Position numbers and translations under genes: made by a program. A DNA stretch of 64,000 nucleotides, from the NCBI RefSeq assembly GCF_019175385.1, contig NC_083343.1:53094457-53158456 (forward strand), written 5' to 3'. The stretch comes from Lycium barbarum (lineage: Eukaryota; Streptophyta; Magnoliopsida; Solanales; Solanaceae). The notes below the pieces were generated by a model. It did no database searches. It was given only the letters and a program-made list of their open reading frames with translations, and was not told where the DNA came from. Every line of letters begins with the position of its first letter. Position 1 is the first letter of the stretch. Positions 14,881 through 61,757 of this stretch are shown piece by piece.

Positions 14881-15683
14881 TCATAGTGGTAAGGGACAGT
14901 TCGTATATAACTTAAATCCATCAATAAATAATCTGAAGAAGGGTATACCTGATGGTGCATCCTGCGGTGTCTCTGGACTCGGTCTCCCACCTAGACCGTA
15001 GATACGATGCGGCCCAGTACTAGAGCTAGATGCTCCACCTCTGCCCCTACCTCGGCTGGAAGAAGTCTGGAGTCCTATCTCCGGGGCTGTCACTGAGGGT
15101 GACGATGCTGCTACCGAATTCTAAGGAACAATACTACCCACCTTTTGTGGGCAATCTCCAGCATAGTGCCCCGGATCACCACAAGTATAGCATACACCCT
15201 GACAACATCGTCCTACATGACGTTTCCCACAAGTCGCACATCGAGGAGGGGGCATCACCTCCTGCCCTGACCCCACCTGCTGCTGAGAACCCGATGCATA
15301 AAAACTCTATCTCTGCCTAAGGGAAGTCTCCCTACCCCGCTGAGATCCTTGAAACTGCAGAGGTGTACTATACTGGGGTCTGCTCTCGCTAGTGGAACCT
15401 CTATACTGACCCTCTGACCTACCCCTCTTGGGCTGACTACTACTCTGCTCCGAGATAGCCTCTCGCTGGCACCTATGATCCTCTGACCCTTTAGCATAAG
15501 CCTAAATACGAGCTATATCCATACCTGGCTTCATCACTACAGCCATACAAGCCTCCTACAACCCTGGCTCTAATCCCATCATGTATCGGTGAACTCTATC
15601 TTCCATTTCCTGCACAATAGAAAGGGCATATCTGGCTAAAGAATCAAACTCCACACTATACTCTCTAACACACATACTACTCT
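14881..15683 (-). pseudogene. gag: Element B gag, 3' part with zinc knuckle
   Basis: Continues the gag that is broken at 25037 by element C. It begins with REYSVEFDS and follows the capsid-like domain (MEDRVHRYMMGLEP, DIARI), a Ser/Gln/Arg-rich tail and a zinc knuckle CYTCGDPGHYAGDC, then a Gly/Arg-rich linker and RIYGLGGRPSPE, the stretch that precedes protease in A and G. After about 14945 the resemblance ends and pol is absent. At least three in-frame stops are present. From 14589 to 14880 I see nothing coding. Confidence 0.82.
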
Positions 15684-16018
15684 TGTTATAGCCCGTATTT
15701 TGTACGTTCGGATATTTCGAGATAGTCGTGGCAAGTTAAGGGTAAGACCATTTTCAAAAATTATTTTAATGTACAAGTTGTTACGAATATTATTTATGAA
15801 TATTATAAGTATGGAAATATTGAGAAAGGCTAAGGGCAAAAAGGAAAATTCGTAAAGTGGCTTATGGTAATATTGTGAAAGGCTAGGGGTAAAACGGGAA
15901 TTTCACAAAGTGTTCTTGAAAGTTCATAAAGGGCGAACTTTCGCCGTGTATGTGTGTGTATAGGTGTGTGGGCCCCACCCATGGCCATGTGTCCATATTC
16001 TTATTTGTGGGGCTTAAG

Positions 16019-16026
16019 TATAAATA
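16019..16026 (+). promoter_or_regulatory. TATA-like box in element C 5' LTR
   Basis: TATAAATA about 335 bp into the LTR, with the identical string at 22233-22240 in the 3' LTR. It lies in a GGGGCTTAAG context, about 260 bp before the conserved donor-like site. This fits a Pol II core promoter with a start near 16050; not tested. Confidence 0.55.
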
Positions 16027-17879
16027 TAGCAAAGTGGTAGCAAAATAAGGCAAAGTAATCTGCATGGAAAATTCAAGAAACTTGAAGGCAAGAAGAGGCA
16101 AGGTATCCGGCCATGGCTCCTAAAATTGAGCCATGGAAAATTGATGAAGAAAAATTATGTTCTTCTAGTATTCCAACTAATTTGAAGGCCCTAATTAACA
16201 TGGAGTGGTTGTTGGAACAAGCGAAGTACTCATGGTGCAAGATGGAAGTTTTGGCCGAATAAGAGGAGTCAAAGAATAAAGGTAAGGTTTAACCCCTCCT
16301 TTCATGTGTTATAGATGATTTGTGAGTATTGTAGCATGTAGAAACGGATGAAATTCATGAAATAGATGTATGTTGGGGGTGGCCGAATGGGATGGTATGG
16401 TGTAGGAAATATGAATTGATTTTTATTTAGTAACTTGATTGTTGTTGTTGTGGATTCCATAATAAAAATGAAGATCTAATGGTTTGAAATGAAGTTGTAA
16501 TCGTTTATAGATTATGGAAGAAACTAATGTGATATTAGTATGGTTTCTTATGATTATAAGAATGAATGATATTGCTAAAGTATAAATTGTTGATGTAGTT
16601 TATGAATTTGGAAGAAAGGAAATGTGTTGTTAGTGTTCTTGTGGAACTTGGAAGGTTTCGGGTGAAGTAGTATGTCAATTAGGTTGTTTGGAATATTATG
16701 TGAATTGTTTGAAGTATTCTTGAATTTTTCTTGTAAGGTCTTGGGCGAGTACTTGAATGTGAGATTATTGGCATTGGTTTGATTTCATGCGATTGAATTG
16801 AGTATAAATGGAATGCCGTCGGATTGTGTAGAAAGAATTGTTAATGTTAGAATGTATTTTGAAATAATTGTTGAAGTTGGAAGCCATGATTGTTGGTATT
16901 GTTATTGATAATTTGGCTGAGTTACATTCTCGGGTTAGTTGTTGATAAATTGGCCGAGTTAGATTTTCGGGGATGATGTGTTTACAGGGGAAATGCTGCA
17001 GAAATTTCGGTAGAATATAAGTGAATTTATGTGAGAAACTAAGGCAAGTGTATGACGACGAATCTCATGATTGTGTGAATTCTTTTGAATGTAGACTAGC
17101 AAGCTTGGATAAATAAGCGTAGCTAATAGGGCGTGGAGCAGGTATGTAAGGCTTACCCTTTCATTCTTTTGGCATGTCTTAGAGCCAAATAAGGTATGAT
17201 ATGCACCTCGGGGTTACTCTATTCTTGGATTCCGAGTCTGTTTATGATTCTTATGCACTTTTGATATGTTTTCAAAAGAATTCTATTAGCTATTTCATAT
17301 GGTTTTGATGCGTATCTATGATGTCCGAGGTTCTGTCTGATATGTTTCCGAATGGCATTCGAAAGATAATTGATATGACTAAAGTTTTGATTTTCAAATG
17401 ATAGCACGTTTGATTATTCCATTGAGTCTTTGATATATTTTGATACGTACATATGGTTCCAAAAGCTCTATTTGATTTGATCCGTAACAATATCTGAAAG
17501 GTACTTGATATGATTGTTGCTTTGATTTTCCAAAAAGGGCTTCTGAAACGTTCGTAGAAGGTTCTGTACATCAAACACTCATAACTTTCTTATACTAAGT
17601 CGGATTGACCCGAAACTTGTTTCTGGGCCATCAGATGTCGGTAAGTGTACGTAACTATCGAGTCTTGATGTATGTGCATATGGTTTCGCACTACTCGGTT
17701 CGTGCAAGTCTCAGTATGTCCTTCACTGCGTCCCGGGCCAGGGTATGTTCTCGTGCGTACTTCTCTGCATTGTTCACCGCGTTTCTCAAACTTGCGGGCC
17801 GGGTCATGTTACATATGATATGATGACATGATGATATGATGACGGGGTGGTGGCCAGGATGGCATATGATGAATTTATT

Positions 17880-18263
17880 CACCGCGTCCCACAATAGAGG
17901 GTCGGGGCACGTTACATGCATATATGACATATGACAGTGGTATACATGATTTCATTCACCGCGTCCCTCAATAGAGGGCCGGGGCACGTTATACGCATAT
18001 ATGATATATGGTAATGACATACAAGAATTTACTCACCGCGTCCCTCACTAGAGGGCCGAGGCACGTTATATGCATATATGATATATGGTAATGACACATA
18101 AATTTACTCACCGCGTCCCTCACTTGAGGGCCGGGGCACGTTATATGCATATATGATATATGGTAATGACATACATGAATTTACTCACCGCGTCCCTCAC
18201 TAGAGGGCCAGGGCACGTTATATGATACATGATATACGATGATGGTATACATGATTTTCATTT
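17880..18263. repeat. 77-bp tandem repeat in element C 5' LTR
   Basis: Five units starting CACCGCGTCCC at 17880, 17957, 18034, 18109 and 18186. Each unit has a GTCCCTC...GAGGGCC inverted repeat followed by alternating TATATGCATATATGATATA. Diverged units lie upstream (from about 17720). It is directly upstream of the acceptor-like module. Confidence 0.92.
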
Positions 18264-18363
18264 GAAAAGGCAAGTGCTTTGATGTTTAAAAGTTCATACT
18301 TGATTCTGGTAAACCTCTGTTTCAGCTATGATTCTCTTTTACTGTGATTCTTACCTTACATGC

Positions 18364-18420
18364 TCAGTACATTTTCCGTACTGACCCCCTTTCTTCGGGG
18401 GCTGCGTTTCATGCGCGCAG
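18364..18420 (+). promoter_or_regulatory. Conserved LTR acceptor-like module (element C 5' LTR)
   Basis: CAGTAC...GTACTG stem, TACTGAC (18379-18385), CCCCCTTTCTTC, GGGGG, CTGCGTTTCATGCGCGCAG with AG at 18419-18420. The spacing from the branch-like A (18384) to the final G is 36 nt. Confidence 0.6.
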
Positions 18421-18834
18421 GTACACCCGGATGAGTAGAAGCCAATATAGAAGATGTTCTAGCAGCGTTGGCAAGCTCCACTTGCTCCTAGAGTGCTGCC
18501 GAGTCAAAGTATATGTGCTATGATGTCTGATTAATGTTAGAGACTTTGCAGACAGAGTCGTGGGTATAGAATGTCAGTGTTGCAAGCGGCTTCACCAGCC
18601 GATGTGTCTATATATATATTATGTCACAAATTCCATAGGATTACGGTTTTATTTGATTTGAGAAAGATGAAAGGAATTTTCTAAAAGCATTTACTATGAA
18701 TTTCATTTGTATTTGGTTTAAAAAGTCCAAAAGTCCAAAAGATTATGTATGTAATAAGATTCAGCGGGTTCGCTCGGCTCCGAATATGGGGTCGGGTGCC
18801 CATCACACCCTAGTAAGGTTAGGGTGTGACAAAG

Positions 18835-18846
18835 TGGTATCAGAGC
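18835..18846 (+). promoter_or_regulatory. Element C primer-binding site
   Basis: TGGTATCAGAGC three bases after the LTR end, complementary to initiator tRNA-Met and identical to that of element A. Confidence 0.95.
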
Positions 18847-18893
18847 AGGTTTGTCCTAGGGGTTGTCTGCAAAGTCGTGTCCAGTAGAGTCCT

Positions 18894-18926
18894 GTTTATG
18901 GTGTGAAGCGCGCCAGATTTATAAAT
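18894..18926 (+). promoter_or_regulatory. Leader hairpin with palindromic loop GCGCGC (element C)
   Basis: GTTTAT...ATAAAT stem with an inner GTGTG/CAGAT pairing (one mismatch) and the loop AAGCGCGC. The self-complementary hexamer is at 18908-18913. Position and architecture equal those in A, D, F and G. Confidence 0.65.
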
Positions 18927-19710
18927 AGGATGCTACGGGGCATCCAGGGATTGTTGACCTTCTTTCTATCTTAGATCGTGCGATAGAGCCGAGTCATAGG
19001 AAAATAAAATTCCTTATACAAGCCTTACATACGACGGAAGTAGGTAAGTTTTGATATATTTGTTCTGTTACTTGAAATTGGAAGTTCTGGATGGCTTGAA
19101 TGTGATATATAGCCGTATGCTCTGTGAGGCATTGTTGATATTTGTTGCGTACAACTTTTGAATAGTAAGAATTGTAAAGGAGACCCGGTCAGAATTTTGC
19201 AAAAAAAAAATCAGGTTATTTGCTTTGGAACACCCAACAGGAGGAAGCGTGGAAAGAAAATATCATAACCAGAAAATAATGGGATGAGTTGTTTCAGAAA
19301 GGTTGTGGATTTGGTATGACATGAAAAATAATAGCGAGAAAGACGATTAGCAGCCCAGAGGATTAAAATGTATAACATTCGAGGTTTAGTAAGAACAAGG
19401 TCTGTTGGAAGATTCAGAAAGTCGACAATCGGTTTTATTGTAGATTATTATGTAAGGATGGTGAGTGGAAATCCGAATAGACTGATACCTGAGTACTTGT
19501 AAGTAATGGCGACGAAGGTATGTTCCCCCCCATCGGGAATCTGGAAATCTGGGATAAAAGGTAACAATACTCACAGGTGAAAGGTGAACATGGAAGATCA
19601 ACAAGGGTAAAATAGTAATTGTAAAAAAGAAGAACGTGTTACGAAATGTCTCAGAATTTGTAAGACTTCGATTTGTTCCAGACCATGTAATAAAGGTCAT
19701 GCGAGGAGGT

Positions 19711-19813
19711 GGACGCAATTATATCAACATTAAGGCACCGGGTTCCATCGAAGTTTCGAGGTTAAGAGTGCTAAGGTAGGAGCAATTTTAGGATGGGTGA
19801 CCCCCTGGGAAGT
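19711..19813 (+). ncRNA. 5S rRNA-like domain in element C
   Basis: Sense to the element. Segments follow plant 5S rRNA order: GGACGCAATTATATCA (5S start GGRTGCGATCATACCA), TTAAGGCACCGG, GGTTAAGAGTGCTAAGG (box A region) and AGGATGGGTGACCCCCTGGG followed by AAGT (box C region). The 3' strand closing helix I is missing and no T-run terminator follows, so this is not an intact 5S gene. Equivalent domains are in D and F. The match is from my knowledge of the 5S sequence; no alignment was run. Confidence 0.8.
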
Positions 19814-20566
19814 GAACTAAAAGTTCCATAAATCGAAACATAAGCGGCATATGAGAAGCTAGAGTAGCCTAAGGGAAACTACAGTATACGGGATGGTTAG
19901 AGACCATAAGAGGTCGCGCAGGACGAGGCAGACTAGCCTGGTGAAGAGACAAAAAGTGCATCACAGCTCTGGAATTAGAATAGGCTTGAATAGTGTTTAG
20001 AAGTATTTTGTGGGCTAGTTGATAATAATTATATACTTATATATATAAATGCGTAGGATATCCCACATGTGCTTGTATCGGTGGACATGTGAGTCCCAGC
20101 AACCGGCACTACGGTAAAGAAGGCATTAACCAAGTAAGGGTACCGAAGTTCAAGTGACAACAAGAATAAACGACACAAATGTTATAAGGTAGGCTGATGT
20201 TATTCTCTCTATAGGTTAAGGTTGAAAAATTCTAATATAGTTAAAGATTCGATGAATAAGGATAAAGAGAGTGAAAATTGTAAGAATTTTGTGCTAAGAA
20301 CAAAATTAGCGAGACACCTGAGAAATATGGACGCACGGCTGCGACACGAGCACATAGTTAAGAAGAATTACGAGTAAGTAAGCTAAATGGGTGAAAGGAT
20401 TAATAGTGGATGGAAGGGTATGGGAATATTGACAAGAATGATGGTGTAGACAAAAACTAATGGTAAGAAGTTTCGATATGTTGTGCATAGAGTTCGAAAG
20501 AAAGATGAGGAGGAAGGTATAAATGAAGACTTCACAAGAGAACTGTTGGCATATAGGGAGCCCCTT

Positions 20567-20578: not shown

Positions 20579-21860
20579 CATATTATATTAGACTTAGAAA
20601 GGACTCACAACATTTTCAGGCACCAGAGGAGGAAAATTTATTAGCTCAGGGCCAGAGCTCAAAATATATCAGCATATCAAGAGAATACATGAAGGGAATA
20701 GAAACGAGTTGACAATGAAGTGTACCGTGAGGCCGACATGAGGAAAAAGGATGGAAGACACCTTAAAAGAATGCTTCATGCCAACATGAATTATGATATG
20801 TTTAGACCGTGATTTGAGTCCCTCATATCAGCCAAATTTTCACCGTACCTAAGTAGGCAGTGATATGTTTTAAAGGGTAACAAAGAGAGCAAGAAAGGTC
20901 TACAAGTTAAGTGCACAAGGAATAAGGGAGAAAATGATAAGATCCAAAAGATATTGCGGACAACAACGATTATTATAATAAAAGTACCAACGCTTGGTAG
21001 TTTGGAAAGTTTTGAAAGAAAGAAAGAACGTTGTTCCTATGAATGAAATACGAGAGTTTATCGGATACTAGGAAATAGTTCGTGGATCAATAATTATACG
21101 GAGCATGAGAATATACGCTATGAACTTATATGAATCATCGAGGTGAAGCGATGCGCGATCATATTTGTAAGAAATCCACACCGGAGAGCCAACAGGAAAT
21201 AACGACGGACGAAACGAGCGCTAATATAAAGAAATCAAAAACAAGTATACTTGTGTCGAGAAATGTGAGGGAAGGAAGTAAAGAAAAGTTGTAGTAAGAA
21301 CTCAAAGACGTTGCGAACTAAGAGGTTAAGTGGACTCGGATCATAAGTTTCCATAAGTGTAGTTGGACTGCGAAGGATAATAAAGGTTAAAGAAACATTA
21401 TGTAACAAAGACATGAAGATTTTTGGGATAAATATTTAGAATGAAAGATTAAAGGGATAGTGACAAGGACACAAAGAAACAGAGAGCGAAGAAAAGAGAA
21501 CACCAAAGGCCGATGGATATTTATAGCATGATAAGCGAAACTGCAACACTATAGATAAAATAAGAGTAAGGAACAACCTGTGGCCATATTGGATCGTCAA
21601 GTGAAGATTGCGTGCCAAATACATGGCTTCTGTTAAGGTGTGGTGACGAAACAATAACAGAAGAGATGACCTGGGAAGGACAAGGATAATGAATTGGCGC
21701 AATGGATTGGAAAACCCATGACACGGAATGAAGACTCATGTAAAGACCGAGGAGTTCAATTATAAAGAAAGTAAAGTGAAAGATAAGGAATGGGCAGGAA
21801 GAAAAAGGAAAACTATAAAAGAACCCTCCCGGAGTATTATGACACCCCATGAGGTCAGTT

Positions 21861-21897
21861 GAACATTCGAGGACGAATGTTCTAAAGGGGGGGAGGA
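21861..21897 (+). promoter_or_regulatory. Element C pre-PPT hairpin and polypurine tract
   Basis: GAACATTCG-AGGA-CGAATGTTC (21861-21882) is a perfect 9-bp stem with a 4-nt loop, followed directly by AAAGGGGGGGAGGA (21884-21897) and the 3' LTR. Confidence 0.88.
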
Positions 21898-24800
21898 TGT
21901 TATAGCCCGTATTTTGTACGTTAGGATATTTCGAGATAGTCGTGGCAAGTTAAGGGTAAGACCATTTTCAAAAATTATTTTAATGTACAAGTTGTTACGA
22001 ATATTATTTATGAATATTATTAGTATGGAAATATTGAGAAAGGCTAAGGGCAAAAAGGGAAATTCGTAAAGTGACTTATGGTAATATTGTGAAAGGCTAG
22101 GGGTAAAACGGGAATTTCACAAAGTGTTCTTGAAAGTTCATAAAGGGCCAACTTTGGTAGTGTATGTGTGTGTATTGGTGTGTGGGCCCCACCCATGGCC
22201 ATGTGTCCATATTCTTATTTGTGGGGCTTAAGTATAAATATAGCAAAGTGGTGGCAAAATAAGGCAAAGTAATCTTCATGGAAAATTCAAGAAACTTGAA
22301 GGCAAGAAGAGGCAAGGTATCCGGCCATGGCTCCTAAAATTGAGCCATGGAAAATTGATGAAGAAAAATTATTTTCTTCTAGTATTCCAACTAATTTGAA
22401 GGCCCTAATTAACATGGAGTGGTTGTTGGAACAAGCAAAGTACTCATGGTGCAAGTTGGAAGTTTTGGCCGAATAAGAGGAGTCAAAGAATAAAGGTAAG
22501 GTTTAACCCCTCCTTTCATGTGTTATAGATGATTTGTGAGTATTGTAGCATGTAGAAATGGATGAAATTCATGAAATAGATGTATGTTGGGGGTGGCCGA
22601 ATGGGATGGTATGGTGTAGGAAAGTTGAATTGATTTTTATTTAGTAATTTGATTGTTGTTGTTGTGGATTTCCATAATAAAAATGAAGATCTAAAGGTTT
22701 GAAATGAAGTTGTAATCGTTTATAGATTATGGAAGAAGCTAATGTGATATTAGTATGGTTTCTTATGATTATAAGAATGAATGATATTGCTAAAGTATAA
22801 ATTGTTGATGTAGTTTATGAATTTGGAAGAAAGGAAATATGTTGTTAATGTTCTTGTGGAACTTGGAAGGTTTCGGGTGAAGTAGTATGTCGATTGGGTT
22901 GTTTGGAATATTATGTGAATTGTTTGAAGTATTCTTGAATTTTGCTTGTAAGGTCTTGGGCGAGTACTTAAATGTGAGATCATTGGCATTTGTTTGATTT
23001 CATGCGATTGAATTGAGTATAAATGGAATGCCGTCGGATTGTGTAGAAAGAATTGTTAATGTTAGAATGTATTTTGAAATAATTGTTGAAGTTGGAAGCC
23101 ATGATTGTTGGTATTGTTATTGATAATTTGGCCGAGTTGCATTCTCGGGTTTGTTGTTGATAAATTGGCCGAGTTAGATTCTCGGGGATGATATGTTTAT
23201 AGGGGAAATGCTGCCGAAATTTCGGTAGAATATAAATGAATTTATGTGAGAAACTAAGGCAAGTGTATGACGACGAATCTCATGATTGTATGAATTCTTT
23301 TGAATGTAGACTAGCAAGCTTGGATAAATAAGCGTAGCTAATAGGGCGTGGAGCAGGTATGTAAGGCTTACCATTTCTTTCTTTTGGCATGTCTTAGAGC
23401 CAAATAAGGTATGATATGCACCTCGGGGTTACTCTATTCTTTGATTCCGAGCCTGTTTATGATTCTTATGCACTTTTGATACGTTTTCAAAAGAATTCTA
23501 TAAGCTATTTCATATGGTTTTGATGCATATCTATGATGTCCGAGGTTCTGTCTGATATGTTTCCGAATGGCATTCGAAAGATAATTGATATGACTAAAGT
23601 TTTGAATTTCAAATGATAGCACGTTTGATTATTCCATTGAGTTTTTGATATATTTTGATACGTACATATGGTTCCAAAAGCTCTATTTGATTTGATCGGT
23701 AACGATATCTGAAACGTACTTGATATGATTGTTGCTTTGATTTTCCAAAAAGGGCTTCTGAAACGTTCGTAGAAGGTTCTGTACTTCAAACGCTTATAAC
23801 TTTCTTATACTAAGTCGGATTGACCCGAAACTTGTTTCTGAGCCATCAGATGTCGGTAAGTGTACGTAACTATCGAGTCTTGATCTATGTTCATATGGTT
23901 TCGCACTACTCGGTTCGTGCATGTCTCAGTATGTCTTTCACTACGTCCCGGGCCAGGGTATGTTCTCGTGCGTACTTCTCTGCATTGTTCGCCGTGTCCC
24001 TCTCACTTGCGGGCCGGGGCATGTTACATATGATATGATGACGGGGTGGTGGCCAGGATGGAATATGATGACTTTATTCACCGCGTCCCGCAATAGAGGG
24101 CCGGGGCACGTTACATGCATATATGACACATGATATTGGCATACATGATTTCATTCACCGCGTCCCTCAATAGAGGGTCGGGGCACGTTATACGCATATA
24201 TGATATTTGGTAATGACAAACATGAATTTACTCACCGCGTCCCTCACTAGAGGGCCGGAGCACGTTATATGCATATATGATATATGGTAATGACATACAT
24301 GAATTTACTCTCCGCGTCCCTCACTAGAGGGCCGGGGCACGTTATATGCATATATGATATATGGTAATGACATACATGAATTTACTCACCGCGTCCCTCA
24401 CTAGAGGGCTGTGGCACGTTATATAATACATGATATACGATGATGGTATACATGATTTTCATTTGAAAAGGCAAGTGCTTTGATGTTTAAAAGTTCATAC
24501 TTGATTATGGTAAACCTCTGTTTAAGCTATGATTCTCTTTTTACTGTGATTCTTACCTTACATGCTCAGTACATTTTTCCGTACTGACCCCCTTTCTTCG
24601 GGGGTTGCGTTTCATGCCGCGCAGGTAGACCCGGATGAGTAGAAGCCAATATAGAAGATGTTCCAGCGGCGTTGGCAAGCTCCACTTGCTCCTGGAGTGC
24701 TGCCGAGTCAGAGTATATTTGCTATGATGTCTTATTAATGTTAGAGACTTTGCAGACAGAGTCGTGGGTATAGAATGTCAGTGTTGTAAGCGGCTTCACC

Positions 24801-25036
24801 AGCCGATGTGTCTATATATATATTATGTCACAGATTCCATAGGATTACAGGTTTTATTTGATTTGAGAAAGATGAAAGGAATTTTCTAAAAGCATTTACT
24901 ATGAATTTCATTTGTATTTGGTTTAAAAAGTCCAAAAGTCCAAAAGATTATGTATGTAATAAGAGTCAGCGGGTTCGCTCGGTTCTGAATATGGGGTCGG
25001 GTGCCCATCACACCCTAGTAAGGTTTGGGTGTGACA
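21898..25036 (+). repeat. Element C 3' LTR
   Basis: Same layout as the 5' LTR: TATA-like box 22233-22240, donors with GT at 22496-22497 and 23357-23358, box CTGCCGAAATTTCGGTAG (23211-23228), acceptor-like AG at 24623-24624 (37 nt from the branch-like A at 24587). It ends GGGTGTGACA. Confidence 0.93.
24079..24463. repeat. 77-bp tandem repeat in element C 3' LTR
   Basis: Five units starting at 24079, 24156, 24233, 24310 and 24387, exactly 77 bp apart, matching the array in the 5' LTR. Both LTRs keep the same unit number. Confidence 0.92.
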
Positions 25037-25684
25037 ACCCTGCTGCAGGTTAAGGAACCTATCAACCCTTGCCCGTCTCAACTCAGGTGGCATATAATGG
25101 CGCAAGAAGGCATCTTAGAATTCCTGCCAAGTCGGCAGAAAAGCATCCTTGCCCCTCGATAATCTCCATGACTGAAACCAGTTAATCGCTATACCCTGCA
25201 ATCTATAAGCAGCTAACTCAACAGATTTTGTAGCTGACGCCTTCATCACATTTAAAGTACGCTGCATACTATCTATGAACTCCTGAGGATCAGCATTAGG
25301 GTCTGTGCCCTTAAACTCTGAGGGATCTAATGTAAGAAAATCTCAGGCCCTGGCACTAGCAGCCCTATCTGGATACTCATGGCCCCTATCCCATCGTCCA
25401 GCTTGGATAGCAAGTATCTGAGTCAACAAACGGATAGCATCTCTCATCTCCTGACCCTGAGCATCCGGCTGAGGGACTAGAGGTACAGGTATTGGTGCTG
25501 GAGCTGGGGCTAGATCAGGTGCCCCTCTGAGCTCCTCCGGAGGTGGGGAAGTAGGAGAACTCTGGGACTGAATGTGTATCCCAGTATAAGTCTAAGCTCT
25601 GGTGGACCGGGGAGCTTGGCTAACTGCCTCACTCTCAACTGATTTGCCCTTCTGGGCTGCTGTCGCATTACTCTTCCTAGTCAT
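25037..25684 (-). pseudogene. gag: Element B gag, 5' part
   Basis: Starts at the ATG on 25684-25682 (MTRKSNATAAQKGK), aligned with the start in element G. Then come a Pro/Ala-rich stretch, LRDAIRLLT-like helix, FLTLDPSEFKGTDPNADPQEF, and PPELRRARVDRFLNLQQG, all of the retrotransposon Gag capsid-like domain. At least three in-frame stops, near 25595, 25345 and 25110, break it. It stops at the insertion of element C and resumes at 15683. Confidence 0.85.
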
Positions 25685-25799
25685 CGCTGAAATCATACAA
25701 GATTATTAGATTAATGACTTCACTTATGACACAGCTCTATTCGCACGATATCTAACATGAAAGAAGGAATGACACCCTATTAACGACTCGTAGCCTCTT

Positions 25800-34227: not shown

Positions 34228-35678
34228 TGTCACACCCTAATCTTACTAGGGTGTGATGGGCACCCGACCCCATATTCGGAGCCGAGTGAACCCGCTGACC
34301 CTTATTACACTCCTAATCTCTTAAATCACAAAATGAAATACATAGTAGGGGCTTTTAGAAACATTCCTTTCATCGTTCTCAAGGCAAGTAAATCTGTAAT
34401 CATGAGGAATCTGTAACATAATGCATAAGGACACATCGGCTGGTGGAGCCGCTTACAAGACTGACATTCTATACCGACGACTCTGTCATAGCACATTTGT
34501 ACCATATTTCAAATTATACTATTTTATATTCTGCCAAAAATCGGGCAGCATCTCCCCTGTTTATATGCCTAGCCTGAATTCCAATTCAGCAACCAACAAC
34601 ATCAACAACAATACCAATAGTATTAACATCATTTCCAATACCAACGTATGTCATAAAACAGCCCGCACACTGTTTCCTAAATTCCTCCACCAACCAATTT
34701 GTGGTATAACTATTTAATAATTTTATTTTCGTAAAGAAGCTGAAATTAATACCAATAACATTAATAACAACATCCTCCACATTTTACAAGTTAAATACAT
34801 TTATTATCATCCAAAATTTTCTTCAAGTTTCATTCCATAATTCACAACACCAACAAACGAATTTATCAGGCTATTCTCTCCGTGCTAATCCGTCGAAACT
34901 CTATATAAACTCGTTAACAATGAAAAGGAACCTTTTTCATACCTTAAGCATGCAGCCACCACTTTATCACTCTTCTCTTTGGTTGATTTTTAGCTCAAAT
35001 TGAAGACAACGCATCGTACAACACTTTTCCCTTCACGGGCTTTGGGATTCGGGGCTCTGATTTCGATCAAAATTGGTTTTTCTTCTCCAAGATTCTTTTA
35101 CTCTCTCTCCCCAGAATTTTATGGGCGTTCCTGGTCTTAAAATGAGGAGGAAGGACGAAATTTGCACTTATAAAGACATGGGTAATGGGCCTAACCCGGT
35201 TGGGCTCGGATTGGGCCTAGCCCACTGACATTTCTGCCTTAAAACGTCCATATCTCCTTATTCCGACGTCAACTGTGGACCCACGATCTATGGTTGGAAA
35301 GCTAATTAAATTATCGACAACTTCTATTTCTTGGTATTGTTCCCAATTCCAAACTTATAATACCGTTTTTGCCCCTCGAATTCAGATCACCCGAAAACGT
35401 TACTTAAAAATATTTGTTTGGAGGACTTCCACTTTGATTCGGCTCAAGGGTCCTTCTTGAGTTGTGTTCAACTTCACATATGTGCTTCATATAACTTGTC
35501 ATGTGTCCTAAAAAAAATCTCGACGCGTGGGCCCCACCTCAGCTTACGAGTAATCCGACGTACAAAAGTACGGAATACAACATTATCAACGTGAGTTTAA
35601 ATTATGTGGCAACAACATGATTGTCAATTTTGAGGAAGCGCGTGTCACGCTCATGCTCTGAAAATGCGGGGTATAATA
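34228..35678 (-). repeat. Element D 3' LTR (short form)
   Basis: TGTCACACCC...GGGGTATAATA (terminal CA changed to TA). In element orientation it has donor-like TTAAG|GTATG (GT 34941-34942) and box CTGCCAAAAATCGGGCAG (34541-34558). Relative to C it jumps from that box to the last ~330 bp of the LTR, so the second donor, the tandem array and the acceptor-like module are absent. CTTATAAAG at 35167-35175 could be a TATA box. Confidence 0.88.
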
Positions 35679-35715
35679 TTCTCCCCCCCTTTAAAAACAT
35701 TCGTCCTCGAATGTT
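35679..35715 (-). promoter_or_regulatory. Element D polypurine tract and adjacent hairpin
   Basis: The minus strand reads AAAGGGGGGGAGAA at the LTR border (35679-35692). 35696-35715 forms AACATTCG/CGAATGTT with loop TCCT. Confidence 0.85.
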
Positions 35716-38044
35716 CAAACTAGTTTTGTAGTCTGTCCATACTCCTATTCTCGGGTACATCCCGTTATCGGATCCTTCTTCCTTTGATGCGGTTATACCA
35801 TAATAAGCATGTTTGTTACTCCAATATCTTGTCAATATTTGCCCCCTTCATTGGAATATCGCTCAATTCTTTTATTCCTCACAAATTATTTTTAGTCCGA
35901 TCTTAAAAGATACCCTTCAATCACTCTATTCCTTTGCTGACTAACCCCTGGATCTTATTGAACTCGTTTCTACAAAAATTCTCGCTTAGAAATATATCTA
36001 TTCGTCATATCTAAGTGCGATTAGAATCTTTGCGTTATATTCACTGGCTTTCTCCTTATGAATCTTACCTTACGGTGTCTTCAAAACAAATCCACACTTC
36101 GATCTTCAATCCTTACTTTCAATTTTAAGCTTAATACGTTCCTTTCGTCAATTCCCTTAATGTCCATACTGAAATGTATAATGATAACGGCTGTATCATT
36201 TCCGTATAAATTTCATTTTTGTTTTAGGGCCTATACTTGTCATATCTTGGAGTTCGTCATTCCAATCTCTACACTTATACTTTCTTTACTCGCTTCCCCT
36301 CTTTTGGGTCTTACTTATGTCATTCGCCAATCCATTGCCTCACTTCCAATCTTGAATTCATGTATCCCTTTCCTCAATTCCCCTTTCATACCACATCATA
36401 TTCATGCTATTTCCCATAATTTATAGCAGCTGTAATTCACGTGCGAAGTCTTAACATACTCATCTTGTAGTAGCGTAATTCAGTGGTACAGCTAAGGTAA
36501 CAATCCAAATAAGGGATGCATTTTACTTAGCTCAATCGTTAATTATGGGTTAATGTCTACCTCTGCTCCACTTAACAACTCTGTCTCATGGGGATACTTA
36601 GAATACCAGTATGTCAAACCATCCGTACCCTCCATGTAGTGTCACTTATCCCATTCTTCAATAGTCAGCATTCGCTGGCAGCGTCATCTTCCCCTTTTCT
36701 TTTCCATCTCGCCCCCATGATCAACTCACAGTGACCATAACGTATTTCCCTTAACCGCCATCTGTCTTATCAGGGATTTAAGTCCCATGCGCAACTAATA
36801 CCCTTGTGCGTCATACTTTTTTTTATTCTTGTATCGTACTCAGCATTGATTTCAACGACAATCATAATCATATCTTTACTTGGCATTGATGATATCCTTA
36901 CTTTATCGCCTTATTGTCATGTGGGGAACTCGCAACTCATAGCCACATGTCTCTTCCCAGCTTATTCCTTTAGGTACTTTATCTGTCCTGTCTTAGTATA
37001 GGGTATCCATAGGAGACGCATCCTCCTTTTTCCATAATATAACTACTCCTTAAGTTTTTGTACTTCACATATTTCCTTTTCCTTCTATACACATACTTAC
37101 TCCATTTTATAATTAATCCTTTATTCTTCGCACAAGGGACCTTATTCTTAACTCCGTACTGCTTTGTCCTTCAAAATATATTACTTCTATACAATCCATT
37201 CTTCGCTTTCCCACACTCATCCTACTCATTCCCTCTCATATTTATTATGCTGATCCTTTCCTAACAAGGTCTCATAAACTTTCCTATCCACTGGTTCATG
37301 GCTCGCTTATTGGTTTCACACTTGCATTCACTTTCTATTCATGTAGGACATGTCACCTATTTAGTCGTCTCCTCGCTATACTTTATTTAATTTGCATTAT
37401 AGTTCTTGCTACGTTCTCACCTTTAATTGGAATACTTATAAGGGCATCCATTTCCGATGCTTACTCTTCCGGTTCTCATTTTGACATGTCTTTGTCTTTT
37501 ATGACTAACAGCGTTATTAACCTTTTCTAATTTACTGTGCCGATTCATCACCCTCATTCTTTCCTTGGTGCGTAATCGATTTCCTACCGCCGGTTTATTA
37601 AAGCATACTTCTTACTCATATGGTTAGAGATTCGCAGTTACCTCCACCCTAAATATTCTCCCTTTTCCTTCGATCAAGCCGTTAGTATCTTTAATTTTCC
37701 TTAGGGTCCTCATTCCTCGAGTAGCTTTCTCCTCTTGTTATTTGTGGTATCAACTCCGAAGTTTGTAAAATATCCTGCTATACGCGCGAATCGGTTCCAT
37801 TCCTAAGTCACTCTCTAGGAAGGCTTCTCTCTGTTCGAGGCAACCACGCCAACCTGGCTGCGCATTTTTCCTTTTGTAAATATATCCTTCAAGAATTGGA
37901 AATCTATAAACATCATCGCAAGGCCTAACCATACTTCTTTTTACTTTCCATTTCTCCTCATGGTTAGGTCTGAACTCCAACGGAGAGGGCGTGTCAAGGG
38001 TGTTCGATTTCACGCCCCTGAAGATAAGAATCAAACGTGGGCTG

Positions 38045-38263
38045 TCGTATGTTCATACTCCGCTGCAGAATGGGGTGTCTTGAAAGAACCGCTGACATAT
38101 AGTTATAGTTGAAATGGCTTTAACTTCGCTGACAAATAATGGAGTACCAAAGCATCTATGGGTTGAAGCATTCCCTACTGCAGTGCATTTAATCAACGGA
38201 TTGCCATTTTCTTTCATCAACATGCAATCTCCCTTTTCTTCTCTTTATGGTCATGATACTTTT
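38045..38263 (+). pseudogene. Captured Ty1/copia integrase fragment
   Basis: One continuous frame of about 73 codons on the + strand, antisense to element D, reads in order VHTPLQNGV, KNR, then EMALTSLTNNGVPKHLWVEA, AVHLINGLP, SPFSSLYGH. This is the end of the copia integrase core (the QNG...K/R-H region and the GVP..LW.EA..TA..LINR-P...SP...L.G region). Two TGA stops stand where Arg codons (CGA) would be expected, and a TAG ends it at 38264. The surrounding sequence has no further copia domains, so it is a fragment of a foreign element type. Confidence 0.82.
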
Positions 38264-39051
38264 TAGGGGGAGATCACTACTCTTTCTGAGACATCTGATT
38301 AGGTTACTTTAAGAAATATTCAGGGCACAATTCGGATAGTACAGTTCAAGGTGCCAATAATTCACCTTCGAACATCATTCTATCTCTGTTTGACGCCTCA
38401 AGCGAGCACGTTATGGCCTTAAACAAGTACCCAACCTATACAAAAGGCTATAGCTATCCACTATAGGAGCTTTCTCTTACAATCCCTTATTTAGTATATC
38501 ACGAAATCATGAAGCGAACTCGTTCCATTTAATATCTTCTTTTATCTAAATTCATTTATTCCATACTACCACACCTTATTCCCTTTACTTACCATCTACT
38601 CACTTTCTTTCTTTTCCCATTATTGTTGCATTATGATCTTCCAATCTTAACTTGTAGTGGAAACAACATCAACTTACCTTGTAACGTTCGTACCATATCT
38701 TTTGTTTTGTCCCTTAAACTCTGTTATCCTGTTTAATCAATGCCTTCCATACACCATAAGGTTGGTTGCCGGGATACATATACCCACTGATATAGCCATG
38801 TATAGGATATCACATACATAAGCATATATATAATTACTACCATCTCGCTTACAAAATATTTCCAACACTATTCAAGCTCACCCTAATTCTAGAGCTGTGA
38901 TGCACCTTCTTTCTCTTCACCGGTCTAGTTCGCCTCACCCTACATGACCTTTTTAATATTTCTAACCACTCCGCACACTCTAATTTTCCTTTAGATTACA
39001 TTAGCTTTTCACTTTTCTCTTATGTCCGAATTTACAGATTTTTTTTAGGGC

Positions 39052-39154
39052 ACTTCCCAGGGGGTCACCCATCCTAAGATTTCTCTCACCCCAGCACGCT
39101 TAACCTCAAAACTCAAATGAAATTCGGTGCATTAATGCTGATATAATCATATCC
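39052..39154 (-). ncRNA. 5S rRNA-like domain in element D
   Basis: On the minus strand: GGATATGATTATATCAGCAT, TAATGCACCGAAT, GAGGTTAAGCGTGCTGGGGT, GAGAG, AGGATGGGTGACCCCCTGGG, AAGT. This copy is the closest to plant 5S (TAATGCACCG and the GGTGAGAG stretch are retained). The 3' end of 5S is missing. It is sense to element D. Confidence 0.85.
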
Positions 39155-39985
39155 ACCTCCCCACATGACCTTCATTACATGATCTAGAGCAAGTGGAAGT
39201 CTTAACAGATTCCGAGACATTCTCGTAACACATCTCTCCTTTAACAATTACTATTTTAGCCTTTTCAATCCCCAATGTTCACCATTTCACTTATGTGTAT
39301 GGCTACCTTTCACCTTGGATTTCCAAATTCCTAATGGTAGGGAACACACCTTCGTCGCCGTTACTAATAAGTACTCGGGTATCATCCTGTTTAGATTCCC
39401 ACTCACCATTCTTGCATAATAATCTATAGCAAAACTGATTGTTGACTTTCCCTGAATTCCCCAACAGACCTTGCTCCTACTAAACCTCGAATGTTATCCA
39501 TTTTAATTCTTCGGACTACTAACCGTCTTTCTCGCAACCGTTCTTCATTCCATGCCAAATCCATAACCCTTTTGAAACAACGCACCTCACTTGTTGTCTA
39601 TTTACAATATTTCCTTCCCACGCTTCCTCTTGTTCGGCGTACCTAACAAAATGACCTGATTTTGAAAAATTCTGACGGAGTCTCCGTTACAATTCTCATT
39701 ACCCAAATCTGTATGCAGCAAATACCAATAATGCCTCACAGGGCATGTATGTGTATATACGACATATCCCAGCAACCAAGGGCTCCCAATTTCAGATAAA
39801 AGAACAAATATATCAAAACTTACCTCTGTGACTTCACATGTCGTTACTCACTTTCTCCCGTCGATACTATACTTCTGCTAAATTCAAAAGTTAGCATAGG
39901 GGATCTCATTTCCTATGACTTGGCTCTATCGCACGATCTAAGACAGAAAGAAGGTCAATGATCCCTAAATGCCCTGTAGCCTCCT

Positions 39986-40019
39986 GTTTATAAATGTGGC
40001 CGGCTTCACACCCATAAAC
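39986..40019 (-). promoter_or_regulatory. Leader hairpin with palindromic loop GCCGGC (element D)
   Basis: GTTTAT/ATAAAC, an inner GGTGTG/CACATT stem with wobble pairs, and the loop AAGCCGGC on the RNA strand. The self-complementary hexamer (39999-40004) differs from those of A and C. Confidence 0.65.
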
Positions 40020-40065
40020 AGGACTCTACTGGACACGACTTTGTAGACAACTCCTTGGACGACCT

Positions 40066-40077
40066 GCTCTAATACCA
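40066..40077 (-). promoter_or_regulatory. Element D primer-binding site
   Basis: The minus strand reads TGGTATTAGAGC, one mismatch to the initiator tRNA-Met PBS, three bases inside the 5' LTR. Confidence 0.9.
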
Positions 40078-40080
40078 CTT

Positions 40081-49416: not shown

Positions 49417-51790
49417 TGTCACGACCCAACCCCGTAGGCCGTGACTAGTGCCCGATCTGGGCACCCGAACCCATCTATCAAATATTATCTCAAATTCTAT
49501 CAACTCATTCTAGTATATGGCGGAAGCCGACAAGACTTTATTTCAAATTTAGGTAATTTCCAGAAAATTTCGGCAGAGTTTCCTTTGTTTTACGGACTAT
49601 CCAATATACCCTGCACGCAGAAAATACCAACAAAAGCCACACAGGGCTAACCAAGCAATATATAAACATATGCGGACCGGCCGCCTCGGCGTATAGGATC
49701 GCCCAAACAACATATGCGGACCGGCCGCCTCGGCGTATGGGATCGCCCAAACGACATGTACATACATCCATACAGAAAGACCCTAACCCACAAACATGTC
49801 CACAGACCTCTAAACAGACCGACATAATCATATGACGGGACAGGGCCCCGCCGTACCCATGAACGAATATATACAAATGCACTAATAAATATATATATAC
49901 CAAAAGTATAAGCTCCGGAAAGAGAGGAGCACTCCGAATAGCAGAAAGGGTGTCCTAAACAGGTGGATCACCAGGCTGTGCGTCTGTACCTGCGGGCATG
50001 AAACGCAGCCCCCGGAGAAGGGGGTCAGTACGAAATATGTACTGAGTATGCAAAGCAGAAGGTACAGAAATAAATCTGAATAATAATCGAATCAGATATA
50101 TAGAAAATAATACATATCAAAATGTTTATTTCCAAAGTATAAATTATGCATAGGGCACTGGAAAATGTGGTCGCCCGCCTGTCGATGGCGCCACAACACA
50201 GCATAACACCAGAAAGTTTCAAATCTCCGAATCCCCGTCACACATCACAACACAACATAACGCCAAACACAGCATAACGCCAAACATAAGTGGAACCCGG
50301 CCCTCGAGCGAGGAGCACGGTGAACCATAAACACAGCATAACACCGGAATGTATCAAAAAGCGCACGACAACAGAACCGGCCCGGGAACCGGCGAACGAT
50401 ATCATAGTAGGCACGAGCGGAGTAGTGAGGAATCATATGCATAAAATCATTATTATAAATCCGAAGGATAAGTAAAATAGTCATATTCGAAATCGGAATA
50501 ATAATTATCACTTTTTGATTCAAAGTTGTCGAATTTACATAAAGGGCGTCGCGGGACCCACGGACGAGTATAGACCCGAACTGAGCCCGCCTATGAAAAA
50601 CATACCCATTATACATCAAGCAAACTCCTATAAAAATTATTGGAGCGATCCGAGCCTCTATGCGAAAAATATGGCATTCAGAGATTATAAAATTCCTTAA
50701 AGTGAACATTTTCTATGCGAATTTCGGAAAGCGATTACTTCAAATACATCATGGTTCATATTTCATAAAAACATACATAAGAGTGCCAAAGAATATATAT
50801 ATGGATCATAACATGCTCGGATCTAGAATTTGGAATTCCCTTAAAGCTCTAATCTAGCCTATGTGAAACTAAGGCATGCCAAAAGAAGGAAGGTTGCTTT
50901 ACATACCTCAAACGCTCTCCAATATGATCCAACTCAAGCTAAGTCCAAACTATGATTCGGCCTGCCCACGATCTAAAAATAAGCCATAAAATGCCAAACA
51001 TTAGCTAAAAGACTCTTTGGGCATTAAATTGTTCTTCACCTTACAATGATCATAATCAAATAACTAGGCATTAATTCATAATTTCAATCACAACACAACA
51101 ACACCCATTTACACGGCTCAAGCTCTACATACACAACTCACCTCCAACATTTCATATTTCATGATTTTCCTCCATTATAACATACTACAACATGGATATA
51201 ACCTTCATAACGCAAAAACAAAATCAAATCTTACCTTTTCTTCTTCAACTTTACAATAGCCTAGGGTTTGCAATTGGATACAATGAATGGTTAGATGACC
51301 CAAACAACTCTTCCACGCTACTTAGGGACTTCAATATAGTGGGTTAACACCAAGAAATTAATTTTTGAAGGCAAAGAAATGGGGGTTGGTTTTCTTGCTC
51401 CTAGCCGTGAGCTCCCCCTTGGTTCTTCCACTTTTTTTTTTTTGCTAAGTATAGAATGGTGAGGAGATGACTTAAGGTCATCTTTTTAAGTCCCCATAAT
51501 ATCTCTTATGGTTTGTGGCCCACACAATGTGGTGGACCAATTAAAATTGAACACCATTTGTGTGGGCCAACCATGGAAATTGTGAATAATTTTTATCTTC
51601 CAATTTTTATCACTTTTGGTCCCAAATTTTCCTAATTGTTCCATACCAATAAATTCATGCACCACATATATCTCAAAATAAAATCGAAGGTCAAGAATCC
51701 CGACTTTGTATCCCGAAATAATTTTTTTGTCCTTAACTTATCATAATTAAATCCGGATTATTCCACTGTACAAAAATACGGGTTCTAACA
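49417..51790 (-). repeat. Element G 3' LTR
   Basis: 2374 bp, TGTCACGACCC...GGTTCTAACA. Donor-like GAAAAG|GTAAGATTT (GT 51233-51234) and GAG|GTATGTAAAG (GT 50905-50906), acceptor-like AG 49991-49990. A 44-bp direct duplication with TGCGGACCGGCCGCCTCGGC lies at 49665-49757. The ORFs within this LTR recur unchanged in the other LTR and have no protein likeness. Confidence 0.95.
49990..50045 (-). promoter_or_regulatory. Conserved LTR acceptor-like module (element G, left LTR)
   Basis: The minus strand has CAGTAC/GTACTG, TACTGAC, CCCCCTTCTCC, GGGGG, CTGCG...CGCAG|GTAC. The spacing from branch-like A (50025) to AG is 35 nt. The second copy is at 57553-57608. Confidence 0.6.
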
Positions 51791-51825
51791 TCCTCCCCCC
51801 CTTTAGAACATTCGTTCTCGAATGT
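51791..51825 (-). promoter_or_regulatory. Element G polypurine tract and adjacent hairpin
   Basis: The minus strand reads AAAGGGGGGGAGGA at the LTR border. The hairpin 51808-51825 is ACATTCG/CGAATGT with loop TTCT. Confidence 0.85.
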
Positions 51826-51907
51826 CAGATTAACCTTACCGGTCATACAATAATTTGGGGAAGTTTCCTTACTAACTATCACAACAATACAATCATTGAT
51901 CAACGAT

Positions 51908-52429
51908 TCATTTATCAAACAACATAGTCAAATAGAGAATTGGATTACCTGTAGGCTCTGAAAATAAATGAGGATACTTCTTCTTCATATGCTCCTCAGC
52001 TTCCCAGGTCATTTCCTCTCGGTTATTGTTCCGCCACAGCACTTTAACAGAAGCCATATCTTTGTTCCGCAACCTTTTTACCTGGCGATCCAATATGGCT
52101 ATAGGCTGCTCCTCATAAGATAGCTCCTCTGTGACCTGAATGTCATCTACAGGAAAGACTCTGGAAGGGTCACCAATACACTTACGAAGCATAGAAACAT
52201 GAAATACCGGGTGTACCGCTCCCAAGTCAGCTGGCAAATCCAATTCGTAGGCCACCTTGCCTATTTTGCGAATAATCAGATAGGGCCCAATATATCTCGG
52301 ACTGAGCTTTCCTTTCTTGCCAAATCGCATAACACCTTTCATCGGTGACACTTTCAGGAACACCCAATCGCCAATCTGAAACTCTAACGGTCGACGTCGC
52401 TTATCGGCATAAGATTTCTGTCGGCTCTA
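51908..52429 (-). pseudogene. pol: Element G pol C-terminus: SH3-like and chromodomain, after a stop
   Basis: In frame with the upstream pol but cut off by a TAG at 52429-52427, where element A has Gln (LLAAQSRQ). It contains IGDW-type motif (upstream of the Met at 52363), [25 protein letters not shown] and the chromodomain ([35 protein letters not shown]). Without it, integrase would lack its heterochromatin-targeting tail. Confidence 0.88.
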
Positions 52430-55400: not shown

Positions 55401-55567
55401 GGACCGCTAGAACCCGAAGCTCCGCCACGACCCCTGCCGCGGCCTGCTGGTGCTGGAGTACCTCGCCCCGCAGGGCGCATCGCCAACGAGGCTGAAGATG
55501 AACCACCGGCTGACCCGGTAGACTGAGCTGAACTGCCTGTACCACCTCTAGCCGGACAGTCTCTCAT
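52430..55567 (-). pseudogene. pol: Element G protease, RT, RNase H and integrase
   Basis: The frame opens at 55651, but its first ~26 codons are the gag region read out of frame; true homology begins near GPHMRDC. Numbered from 55651: protease D120 (ALIDPGST), RT motif A D389, FIDD D453/D454, then RNase H (YCDAF), integrase zinc site (H...H, CPNC) and core. The conserved SFGLTNAPA motif reads SFELTNAPA (Glu424). The third catalytic integrase residue is Lys984 (QAKRT), codon at 52702-52700, where A has Glu. Two residues are missing before ELPGL compared with A. Confidence 0.92.
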
Positions 55568-56775: not shown

Positions 56776-56885
56776 TGAAAGAAAAACAACAACAGATCAA
56801 AACAGAATCATCCTAATAGCACAGTTCTATCGCACGATCTAAGATCAGAAGAAAAGACAACATCCTAAATGTCCTGTAGCCTCCT

Positions 56886-56919
56886 GTTTATAGATGTGGT
56901 GCACAACACACCGATAAAC
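56886..56919 (-). promoter_or_regulatory. Leader hairpin with palindromic loop GTGCAC (element G)
   Basis: Same stem and loop as in element A (hexamer at 56899-56904), with one change in the inner stem that gives a G-U pair on the RNA strand. Confidence 0.7.
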
Positions 56920-56963
56920 AAGACTCTACTAGACACGATCTGTGGACACTCCGAGGACAAACC

Positions 56964-56975
56964 GTTCTGATACCA
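56964..56975 (-). promoter_or_regulatory. Element G primer-binding site
   Basis: The minus strand reads TGGTATCAGAAC, one mismatch to the initiator tRNA-Met PBS of A and C. Confidence 0.92.
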
Positions 56976-56979
56976 CTTT

Positions 56980-60843: not shown

Positions 60844-60876
60844 GTTTATGGTGTGTAGCGCGCCACATTTATAAAC
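60844..60876 (+). promoter_or_regulatory. Leader hairpin with palindromic loop GCGCGC (element F)
   Basis: GTTTAT/ATAAAC and GGTGTG/CACATT stems with one bulged T, loop TAGCGCGC. Hexamer at 60858-60863. Confidence 0.7.
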
Positions 60877-61411: not shown

Positions 61412-61506
61412 GGACGCGATTATATCGGCGTTAAGGCACCGAATTCCGCCAACGTTTCGAGGTTAAGCGTGCTAAGGTGGGAGGATGGGTGACCCCCCTG
61501 GGAAGT
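61412..61506 (+). ncRNA. 5S rRNA-like domain in element F
   Basis: GGACGCGATTATATC, TTAAGGCACCGAATTCC, GAGGTTAAGCGTGCTAAGG, GAGGATGGGTGACCCCCCTG, GGAAGT in 5S order and in sense orientation. It is slightly shorter between box A and box C than in C and D. No 5S 3' end and no T-run terminator. Confidence 0.82.

Positions 61507-61726: not shown

Positions 61727-61757
<31 letters not shown>

What the first reader, a model, noticed from the sequence alone, without database searches (positions are those of the whole stretch)
19711..19813. 5S rRNA-like domain inside a non-coding gypsy-type element (C)
A stretch of about 100 nt follows plant 5S rRNA in order and sense orientation. The parts matching the internal promoter (box A GGTTAAGAGTGCTAAGG; box C AGGATGGGTGACCCCCTGGG) are the best kept, while the rest has drifted. 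The same domain recurs in D and F but not in the coding elements A and G. Established: Cassandra TRIMs carry 5S in their LTRs, and plant TFIIIA genes carry a 5S mimic that controls splicing. Inference: here a 5S mimic is a module of the internal region of large non-autonomous elements, perhaps to bind TFIIIA or ribosomal protein L5, or to drive Pol III. This appears to be a different arrangement from Cassandra.
Basis: partly seen in the sequence, partly recalled or inferred. Interest (0 to 1): 0.95.

Follow-up and report, generated by a model that had tools for sequence, protein, structure and literature searches.

The report
5S promoter boxes inside gypsy elements
Large protein-less jumping genes in a plant genome carry, deep in their body, a piece of the 5S ribosomal RNA gene whose two promoter boxes seem to have been kept by selection while the rest decayed, which suggests that they borrow the cell's 5S transcription factors.

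Summary
Window 19711-19813 aligns to nt 1-103 of the host's own 5S gene (78/103 sites in C, 81/103 in D; F with gaps). The domain lies in the internal region of three non-autonomous chromovirus-type elements, not in their LTRs, and was not found in coding elements A and G. Rfam 5S passes its cut-off in D (45.1 bits), not in C (31.7); F is not listed.

Of 39 C-type copies 37 have the domain. In 36 of them the box A core (nt 51-62) plus box C (nt 80-103) show 2 changes on internal and 24 on terminal tree branches; flanks 189 and 336 (P 0.002). A D-derived set: 1 and 24 against 68 and 90 (P 8e-5). Nt 1-49 drift nearly like flanks, and no excess of base pairing was found.

The likely role is a DNA-level TFIIIA/TFIIIC docking site or Pol III promoter core, not an RNA mimic for L5. 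Occupancy and transcripts are untested. Against: intermediate element not kept, T runs inside many domains, a one-base insertion in box C of half the D-type copies, and weaker results with wider box limits. It differs from Cassandra in place and size.

The parts
15684..18831 (+). 5' LTR of element C (TGTTAT...GTGACA), about 96% identical to the 3' LTR; no Rfam 5S match in it
18835..18846 (+). primer-binding site TGGTATCAGAGC of element C
   Evidence: same string as the PBS given for Cassandra in PMC7215508
18833..18998 (+). leader shared with coding chromovirus elements A and G (about 79%)
19600..20019 (+). slowly evolving non-coding block around the 5S domain (1-16 internal-branch changes per 20 nt, against 14-30 in the stretches on either side)
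   Evidence: domain-selected copies; 19640-19840 was the selecting query of that set; the edge at 20019 is not clear in the D set, which has 13-15 rows there
19711..19813 (+). 5S-like domain of C, corresponding to 5S nt 1-103
19760..19771 (+). box A (nt 50-61), one mismatch to the published Cassandra box A
19790..19802 (+). box C (nt 80-92); 19790-19813 is identical to the host 5S
20006..20009 (+). first TTTT downstream of the domain; possible weak Pol III terminator (inference)
21568..21683 (+). remnant of the integrase C-terminal coding region
21884..21897 (+). polypurine tract of element C
21898..25036 (+). 3' LTR of element C
39052..39154 (-). 5S-like domain of element D (Rfam 45.1 bits); internal region about 35677-40080, minus strand
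61412..61506 (+). 5S-like domain of element F (9-nt deletion between the boxes, extra C in box C); internal region about 60786-62031

Best explanation
A 5S gene fragment (nt 1-103) was captured into the internal region of a non-autonomous chromovirus-type LTR retrotransposon and spread with it, probably into thousands of places (first-look candidates, mostly unscored). Shown by sequence: on internal tree branches box A and box C hardly changed, while the 5' half, the intermediate element and the flanks did. Inferred: the boxes act on DNA as the core of a type-1 Pol III promoter that recruits TFIIIA and TFIIIC (and perhaps Pol III) to the element body. Transcription from 5S position +1 would start some 575-930 nt inside the element, so it could not make the RNA that is reverse transcribed. 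The benefit is therefore more likely an open-chromatin, anti-silencing or boundary effect on the element's Pol II transcription, or a short internal RNA of about 300 nt, than making the genomic RNA.
For: Flank-selected C set: domain in 37 of 39, in sense in all 37; A core plus box C 2 internal / 24 terminal changes in 36 rows, against nt 1-49 24/62 (P 0.035) and flanks 189/336 (P 0.002). Pooled 76 rows (flank-selected, domain-selected, C, D, F): A core 0/15, box C 2/25, nt 65-79 17/33, nt 1-49 38/114, flanks 302/658; A core plus C against nt 1-49 P 0.0025, nt 65-79 P 6e-4, flanks P 5e-5; box pattern rank 1 of 380 shifts, and the only 12-mers of 19601-19980 without internal change lie at nt 47-62 and 80-96. 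The published box A (nt 50-61) and box C (nt 80-92) have no internal change in either set. D-flank set, 35 rows: A core plus C 1/24, flanks 68/90 (P 8e-5), nt 1-49 28/59 (P 0.004); pattern rank 3 of 216 shifts; mean identity to host 5S 97.6% (51-62) and 97.8% (79-103), 72.7% in nt 1-49, 61.4% in nt 63-78. Box spacing of 17 nt (up to 2 mismatches per box) in 110 of 114 fetched pieces. F keeps the module in an internal region of only 1246 nt.
Against: No occupancy, small-RNA or expression data. With box A taken as nt 50-64 it is not significant in the pooled set (5/24, P 0.15; 7/20, P 0.68 with a tree from all columns), and box A 50-64 plus C against nt 1-49 gives P 0.06 and 0.34. In the D set the contrast with nt 65-79 is not significant (P 0.14). 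Box C also changes about half as often as flanks on terminal branches (0.54 against 1.21 per site), which hints at some lower mutability. TTTT lies inside the domain at nt 76-79 or next to it in 28 of 34 readable domain-selected loci and at 76-79 in 14 of 36 flank-selected ones, which could stop Pol III. The intermediate element is not kept. A one-base insertion in the C run of box C occurs in 18 of 36 D-flank copies (5 unreadable), in F and in 4 of 78 C-set pieces (3 unreadable); the substitution counts do not register it. F has spacing 8. The wider block 19600-20019 is conserved too, so another cis function may contribute.
Confidence: 0.6

Rival explanations
1. The boxes are kept as linear RNA motifs in the element's transcript (packaging, dimer or RNA-protein site), not as a DNA promoter.
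For: The boxes sit in a larger conserved non-coding block of the kind expected for cis RNA signals; the element must be packaged in trans (inference).
Against: The two stretches are the published promoter boxes at the 5S spacing; no excess of pairing was found.
Confidence: 0.17
2. RNA-level 5S mimic that binds TFIIIA or ribosomal protein L5 through the 5S fold, as in plant TFIIIA pre-mRNA (recalled).
For: Helix III keeps 95.6% standard pairs in 37 copies, slid controls 14-71%, with a double change at pair 34-41; read by eye on the sequences, the six pairs 29-34/41-48 stand in C and D, five of six in F.
Against: Within-family changes in helix III keep pairing 12 of 19 times, 10.95 expected; outer pairs of helix II are broken in most copies; nt 1-49 evolve nearly like flanks; folds of C, D and F not 5S-like. 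The pairing test has little power, since most of its changes are on terminal branches.
Confidence: 0.07
3. Relic: the fragment was captured once and rides along without use.
For: Most of the fragment (nt 1-49, and nt 65-79 in the C set) drifts nearly at the flank rate; no product is known.
Against: Box A core and box C show almost no change on internal branches but clear change on terminal ones, in two flank-selected sets.
Confidence: 0.1
4. A special form of the best explanation (odds overlap): a Pol III unit inside the element makes a discrete RNA of about 300 nt, from domain nt 1 to the TTTT about 192 nt after the domain, that serves the element.
For: First downstream TTTT at 194, 197 and 194 nt after nt 101 in C, D and F, and in the 180-199 bin in 32 of 37 readable rows; conservation falls right after it in the domain-selected set, from 3-4 to 15-26 internal changes per 20 nt.
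Against: TTTT within the domain in many copies; the T run reads CTTT in 7 of 34 flank-selected rows; the fall after it is not clear in the D set; weak consensus fold, -22 kcal/mol with 5 of 46 pairs compensatory.
Confidence: 0.25

Closest known systems
Cassandra retrotransposons (plant TRIMs with 5S in the LTR)
   Same: 5S-derived box A and box C with the published 18-nt separation; same PBS string; no proteins (PMC7215508 passages; PMC10853983 one section and passages)
   Different: Here the domain is some 575-930 nt inside the internal region, once per element; LTRs of C, D and F are about 1.4-3.4 kb; the elements are chromovirus derivatives, many with an integrase remnant
Ajax (5S in LTRs of nemertean TRIMs; TRIMp3 of Kojima 2024)
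   Same: Only the promoter motifs kept, rest diverged, no 5S fold (PMC10886601 sections)
   Different: LTR location, 421-434 bp elements, animal host
LARD-type large non-autonomous LTR elements (definition recalled)
   Same: Long LTRs and a long conserved non-coding internal region
   Different: I recall no Pol III promoter described in LARDs; one listing search on it showed none
SINE3 (5S-headed SINEs)
   Same: 5S homology begins at nt 1 and stops before the 3' end (nt 103)
   Different: Module lies inside an LTR element at a similar place in C, D and F; a LINE tail or target-site duplication around it was not looked for
5S mimic in plant TFIIIA genes (recalled)
   Same: 5S sequence reused outside rDNA
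   Different: That one acts as folded RNA; here no selection on pairing was found

Membership tests
Cassandra | 5S-derived region in the LTRs | tested here: not met
   Rfam 5S hits of the window lie only in the internal regions of C and D; none in the LTRs at E<=5
Cassandra | box A RGTTAAGYRHGY, 18 nt, box C RRRATRGGTRACY | tested here: met
   D exact, C one mismatch, F not found at <=1 mismatch; exact in 87 of 114 fetched pieces (36/39, 25/39, 26/36)
Cassandra | TRIM size, about 565-860 bp | tested here: not met
   C spans about 9.35 kb; size from PMC10886601
Cassandra | PBS TGGTATCAGAGC | tested here: met
   C exact, D one mismatch, F altered at its 5' end; found with up to 1 mismatch upstream of the domain in 36 of 39 loci
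TRIMp3 | Pol III promoter in the LTR of a TRIM | tested here: not met
LARD (recalled definition) | long LTRs, long non-coding internal region | tested here: met
   C: LTR 3.15 kb, internal about 3.07 kb, no ORF of 150 aa or more in it
Non-autonomous chromovirus derivative | leader, polypurine tract and integrase remnant shared with chromovirus elements | tested here: met
   C; integrase remnant in 22 of 39 six-kb loci (12/20, 10/19)
RNA 5S mimic | 5S fold maintained by selection | tested here: not met
   low power
Type-1 Pol III promoter | box A and box C at 5S spacing | tested here: met
   17 nt between nt 62 and 80 in host 5S and in 110 of 114 pieces; F differs
Type-1 Pol III promoter | intermediate element kept | tested here: not met
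   nt 63-78 61.4% identical to host 5S in the D set; nt 65-79 change as fast as flanks in the pooled set
Type-1 Pol III promoter | TFIIIA/TFIIIC binding and Pol III transcript | not testable with these tools
   no ChIP or RNA data

The most novel reading that the evidence does not exclude
A class of large non-autonomous Ty3/gypsy elements carries a selected, minimal 5S-type promoter (box A plus box C without an intermediate element) inside its body, which recruits TFIIIA/TFIIIC, and perhaps Pol III, to probably thousands of retrotransposon copies for a purpose other than making the genomic RNA, such as keeping the element open, acting as a boundary, or making a short internal RNA.
Probability: 0.4. 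Interest if true: 0.85.

Novelty: new variant of a known kind. Interest (0 to 1): 0.72.

Why it matters
If the boxes bind TFIIIA/TFIIIC, probably thousands of dispersed sites could titrate or redistribute the 5S transcription factors and mark retrotransposon bodies. It would also separate what the promoter boxes do from making the template RNA, which is hard to do in Cassandra because there the boxes lie in the LTR. The internal/terminal branch comparison gives a direct way to look for such kept modules in other plants.

Tried and rejected
Chance similarity: rejected. Recurrent conversion by true 5S genes: rejected, because it would refresh the whole domain, and nt 1-49 and 63-78 stay diverged. 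RNA fold: helix III looked promising but the branch-based test gave no clear excess. Intermediate element as part of the module: not kept. Constant spacing as independent evidence: a 42-nt indel scan found 112 of 338 windows of the C set free of indels, and the A-C span itself with an indel in 1 of 37 rows, so spacing alone is weak; in the D set half of 34 rows have an indel in the span, traced to the extra C in box C. The 40 hits were chosen with a 201-nt query that includes the domain, so their low diversity there is biased; flank-selected sets were used for the main test. Windows without internal change are confined to the boxes in the pooled set; in the D set nt 65-76 is also free, and in the domain-selected set alone several others are. 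A possible autonomous carrier, L011 (polymerase piece joined to C sequence at window 19671), lies at the same 77.27-kb offset as a second copy of D and is read as a duplication breakpoint. L032 has gag and protease pieces and L018 a short polymerase piece nearby; their layout was not resolved. Statistical limits: Fitch parsimony, midpoint roots, changes treated as independent, box A core limits 51-62 set after the per-site counts had been seen; a tree built from flanks favours internal placement of flank changes, which is why nt 1-49 and 65-79 (also left out of that tree) are given as comparators. L010 and L053 are one place; L053 was left out of the pooled set but counts in the 114 pieces. 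L083 and L084 look like near copies of each other.

Full report
What is there. The window holds three non-autonomous LTR elements: C (plus strand, LTRs 15684-18831 and 21898-25036), D (minus strand, internal region about 35677-40080) and F (plus strand, internal region about 60786-62031, 5' LTR split by element G, 3' LTR cut by the window end). Each has the 5S-like domain in sense inside its internal region, 878, 926 and 625 nt after the LTR end. C keeps a 166-nt leader shared at about 79% with coding elements A and G, an integrase C-terminal remnant at 21568-21683 and a polypurine tract. A carries reverse transcriptase, RNase H, integrase and chromo domains, and the G piece scanned carries the SH3 and chromo domains. 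The elements are thus non-autonomous relatives of chromoviruses.

The similarity to 5S is not chance. Local scores are 74, 91 and 49 for C, D and F against a shuffle maximum of 30 in 15,000 shuffles each. Rfam 5S reaches 45.1 bits in D, above its cut-off, and 31.7 in C, below it; F is not listed. Against the host's own 5S, taken from an array at C6:25.57 Mb, C matches 78 and D 81 of 103 sites. With limits set after seeing the alignment, none of D's 22 differences and 1 of C's 25 lie in nt 51-62 and 79-103 (P 1e-5 and 4e-5); with recalled limits that include the intermediate element and the typed 5S, P is 0.017 for D and 0.21 for C. The alignment starts at 5S nt 1 and ends at nt 103, so the last 16 nt are missing or beyond recognition.

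Genome-wide. The first query (201 nt with the domain) had 3270 first-look candidates, 40 scored. An upstream query without the domain, 18850-19600, had 7321, 40 scored. For 39 of those 40 (all but the window's own), 441 nt reaching over the domain were fetched. Rfam finds 5S in 37 of 39, all in sense; 14 reach the cut-off. The two misses, L054 and L056, are copies whose alignment to C breaks off at 19747 and 19623, before box A. So the domain belongs to the family. Only the 40 best of each search were scored, so the true copy number is not known.

Selection test. In 36 of these 39 copies (three with poor cover dropped), changes per site are 0.62 in nt 80-103, 1.13 in nt 50-64, 2.0 in the intermediate element, 1.76 in nt 1-49 and 1.90 in flanks; the order is similar outside CG/CHG sites. 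Split by branch: nt 50-64 1 internal and 16 terminal, nt 51-62 0 and 11, nt 80-103 2 and 13, nt 1-49 24 and 62, flanks 189 and 336. Terminal branches mostly show decay after insertion; internal branches show what was propagated. A core plus box C (2/24) differs from flanks (P 0.002) and from nt 1-49 (P 0.035). With 76 rows (flank-selected and domain-selected copies plus C, D, F; 3 of 79 dropped) the A core shows 0/15, box C 2/25, nt 65-79 17/33, nt 1-49 38/114 and flanks 302/658; the box pattern ranks 1 of 380 shifts. Combined core counts differ from nt 1-49 (P 0.0025), nt 65-79 (P 6e-4) and flanks (P 5e-5). With box A as nt 50-64 the result is weaker: 5/24 (P 0.15), or 7/20 (P 0.68) with a tree from all columns, because nt 63-64 change; together with box C against nt 1-49, P 0.06 and 0.34. 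The published box A (nt 50-61) and box C (nt 80-92) have no internal change in either set. Nt 1-49 are slightly below flanks (P 0.13, or 0.04 with the all-column tree).

Second set. A D upstream query (5917 candidates, 40 scored) gave 36 fetched copies (20 at 451 nt, 16 at 221 nt); the window's own copy, one 77-kb duplicate and two partial hits were not asked for. With D added and two broken rows dropped, 35 rows give A core 0/10, box C 1/14, flanks 68/90; cores against flanks P 8e-5, against nt 1-49 P 0.004, against nt 65-79 P 0.14; pattern rank 3 of 216 shifts. Compared by eye, no place occurs in both sets, though the sets may be interleaved in a tree.

What is not kept. The intermediate element and most of the 5' half drift. 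Changes at helix pairs keep pairing in 33 of 49 cases, 29.4 expected. The box spacing is 17 nt in 39 of 39, 37 of 39 and 34 of 36 pieces, allowing 2 mismatches per box, but an indel scan shows this is not unusual for the region in the C set. A one-base insertion in the C run of box C marks 18 of 36 D-flank copies (5 unreadable), F and 4 of 78 C-set pieces, so the 3' part of box C tolerates some change.

Mechanism. The pattern fits DNA binding by the 5S factors TFIIIA and TFIIIC better than an RNA mimic. A Pol III start at 5S +1 would lie some 575-930 nt inside the element and could not make the genomic RNA. A short RNA is possible: the first downstream TTTT lies 194, 197 and 194 nt after nt 101 in C, D and F, and in the domain-selected set conservation falls just after it, though not clearly in the D set. 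TTTT inside the domain in 28 of 34 readable domain-selected loci and 14 of 36 flank-selected ones speaks against it. Which benefit was selected is inferred, not shown.

Compared with known kinds. Cassandra carries the same boxes with the same separation (PMC7215508, passages) but in LTRs of elements under 1 kb; Ajax likewise keeps only the promoter motifs, in LTRs (PMC10886601, abstract and sections 7, 17, 19). PMC10853983 was seen in passages and one section. No report of a 5S promoter inside the internal region of large LTR elements showed in the listings of ten searches of the held library; other papers were seen as listings only, and subscription papers are largely missing there.

Noticed in passing
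G000 C7: 53114096 and 53191364 (C), 53133686 and 53210957 (D): C and D both have near-identical second copies about 77.27 kb further on, which suggests a segmental duplication with one end near window 19671.
   Followed up: partly
window 19600-20019: A conserved non-coding block larger than the 5S domain, ending soon after TTTTGTGGGCTAG in the domain-selected set; the cause of its wider conservation is unknown.
   Followed up: partly
window 49417-59361: Coding element G, with LTRs 99.5% identical, is inserted in the 5' LTR of F: a young insertion.
   Followed up: no
window 15178-15678 and 25040-25696 (minus): C sits inside the gag region of an older gypsy element.
   Followed up: no
window 17831-18340 and 24030-24541: 77-bp tandem repeat in the LTRs of C, apparently with different copy numbers in the two LTRs.
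   Followed up: no
L087, L088 (host 5S): The host 5S has C at nt 93 where the plant 5S recalled from memory has T; C and D have C too, reminiscent of Cassandra mirroring host promoter changes.
   Followed up: no
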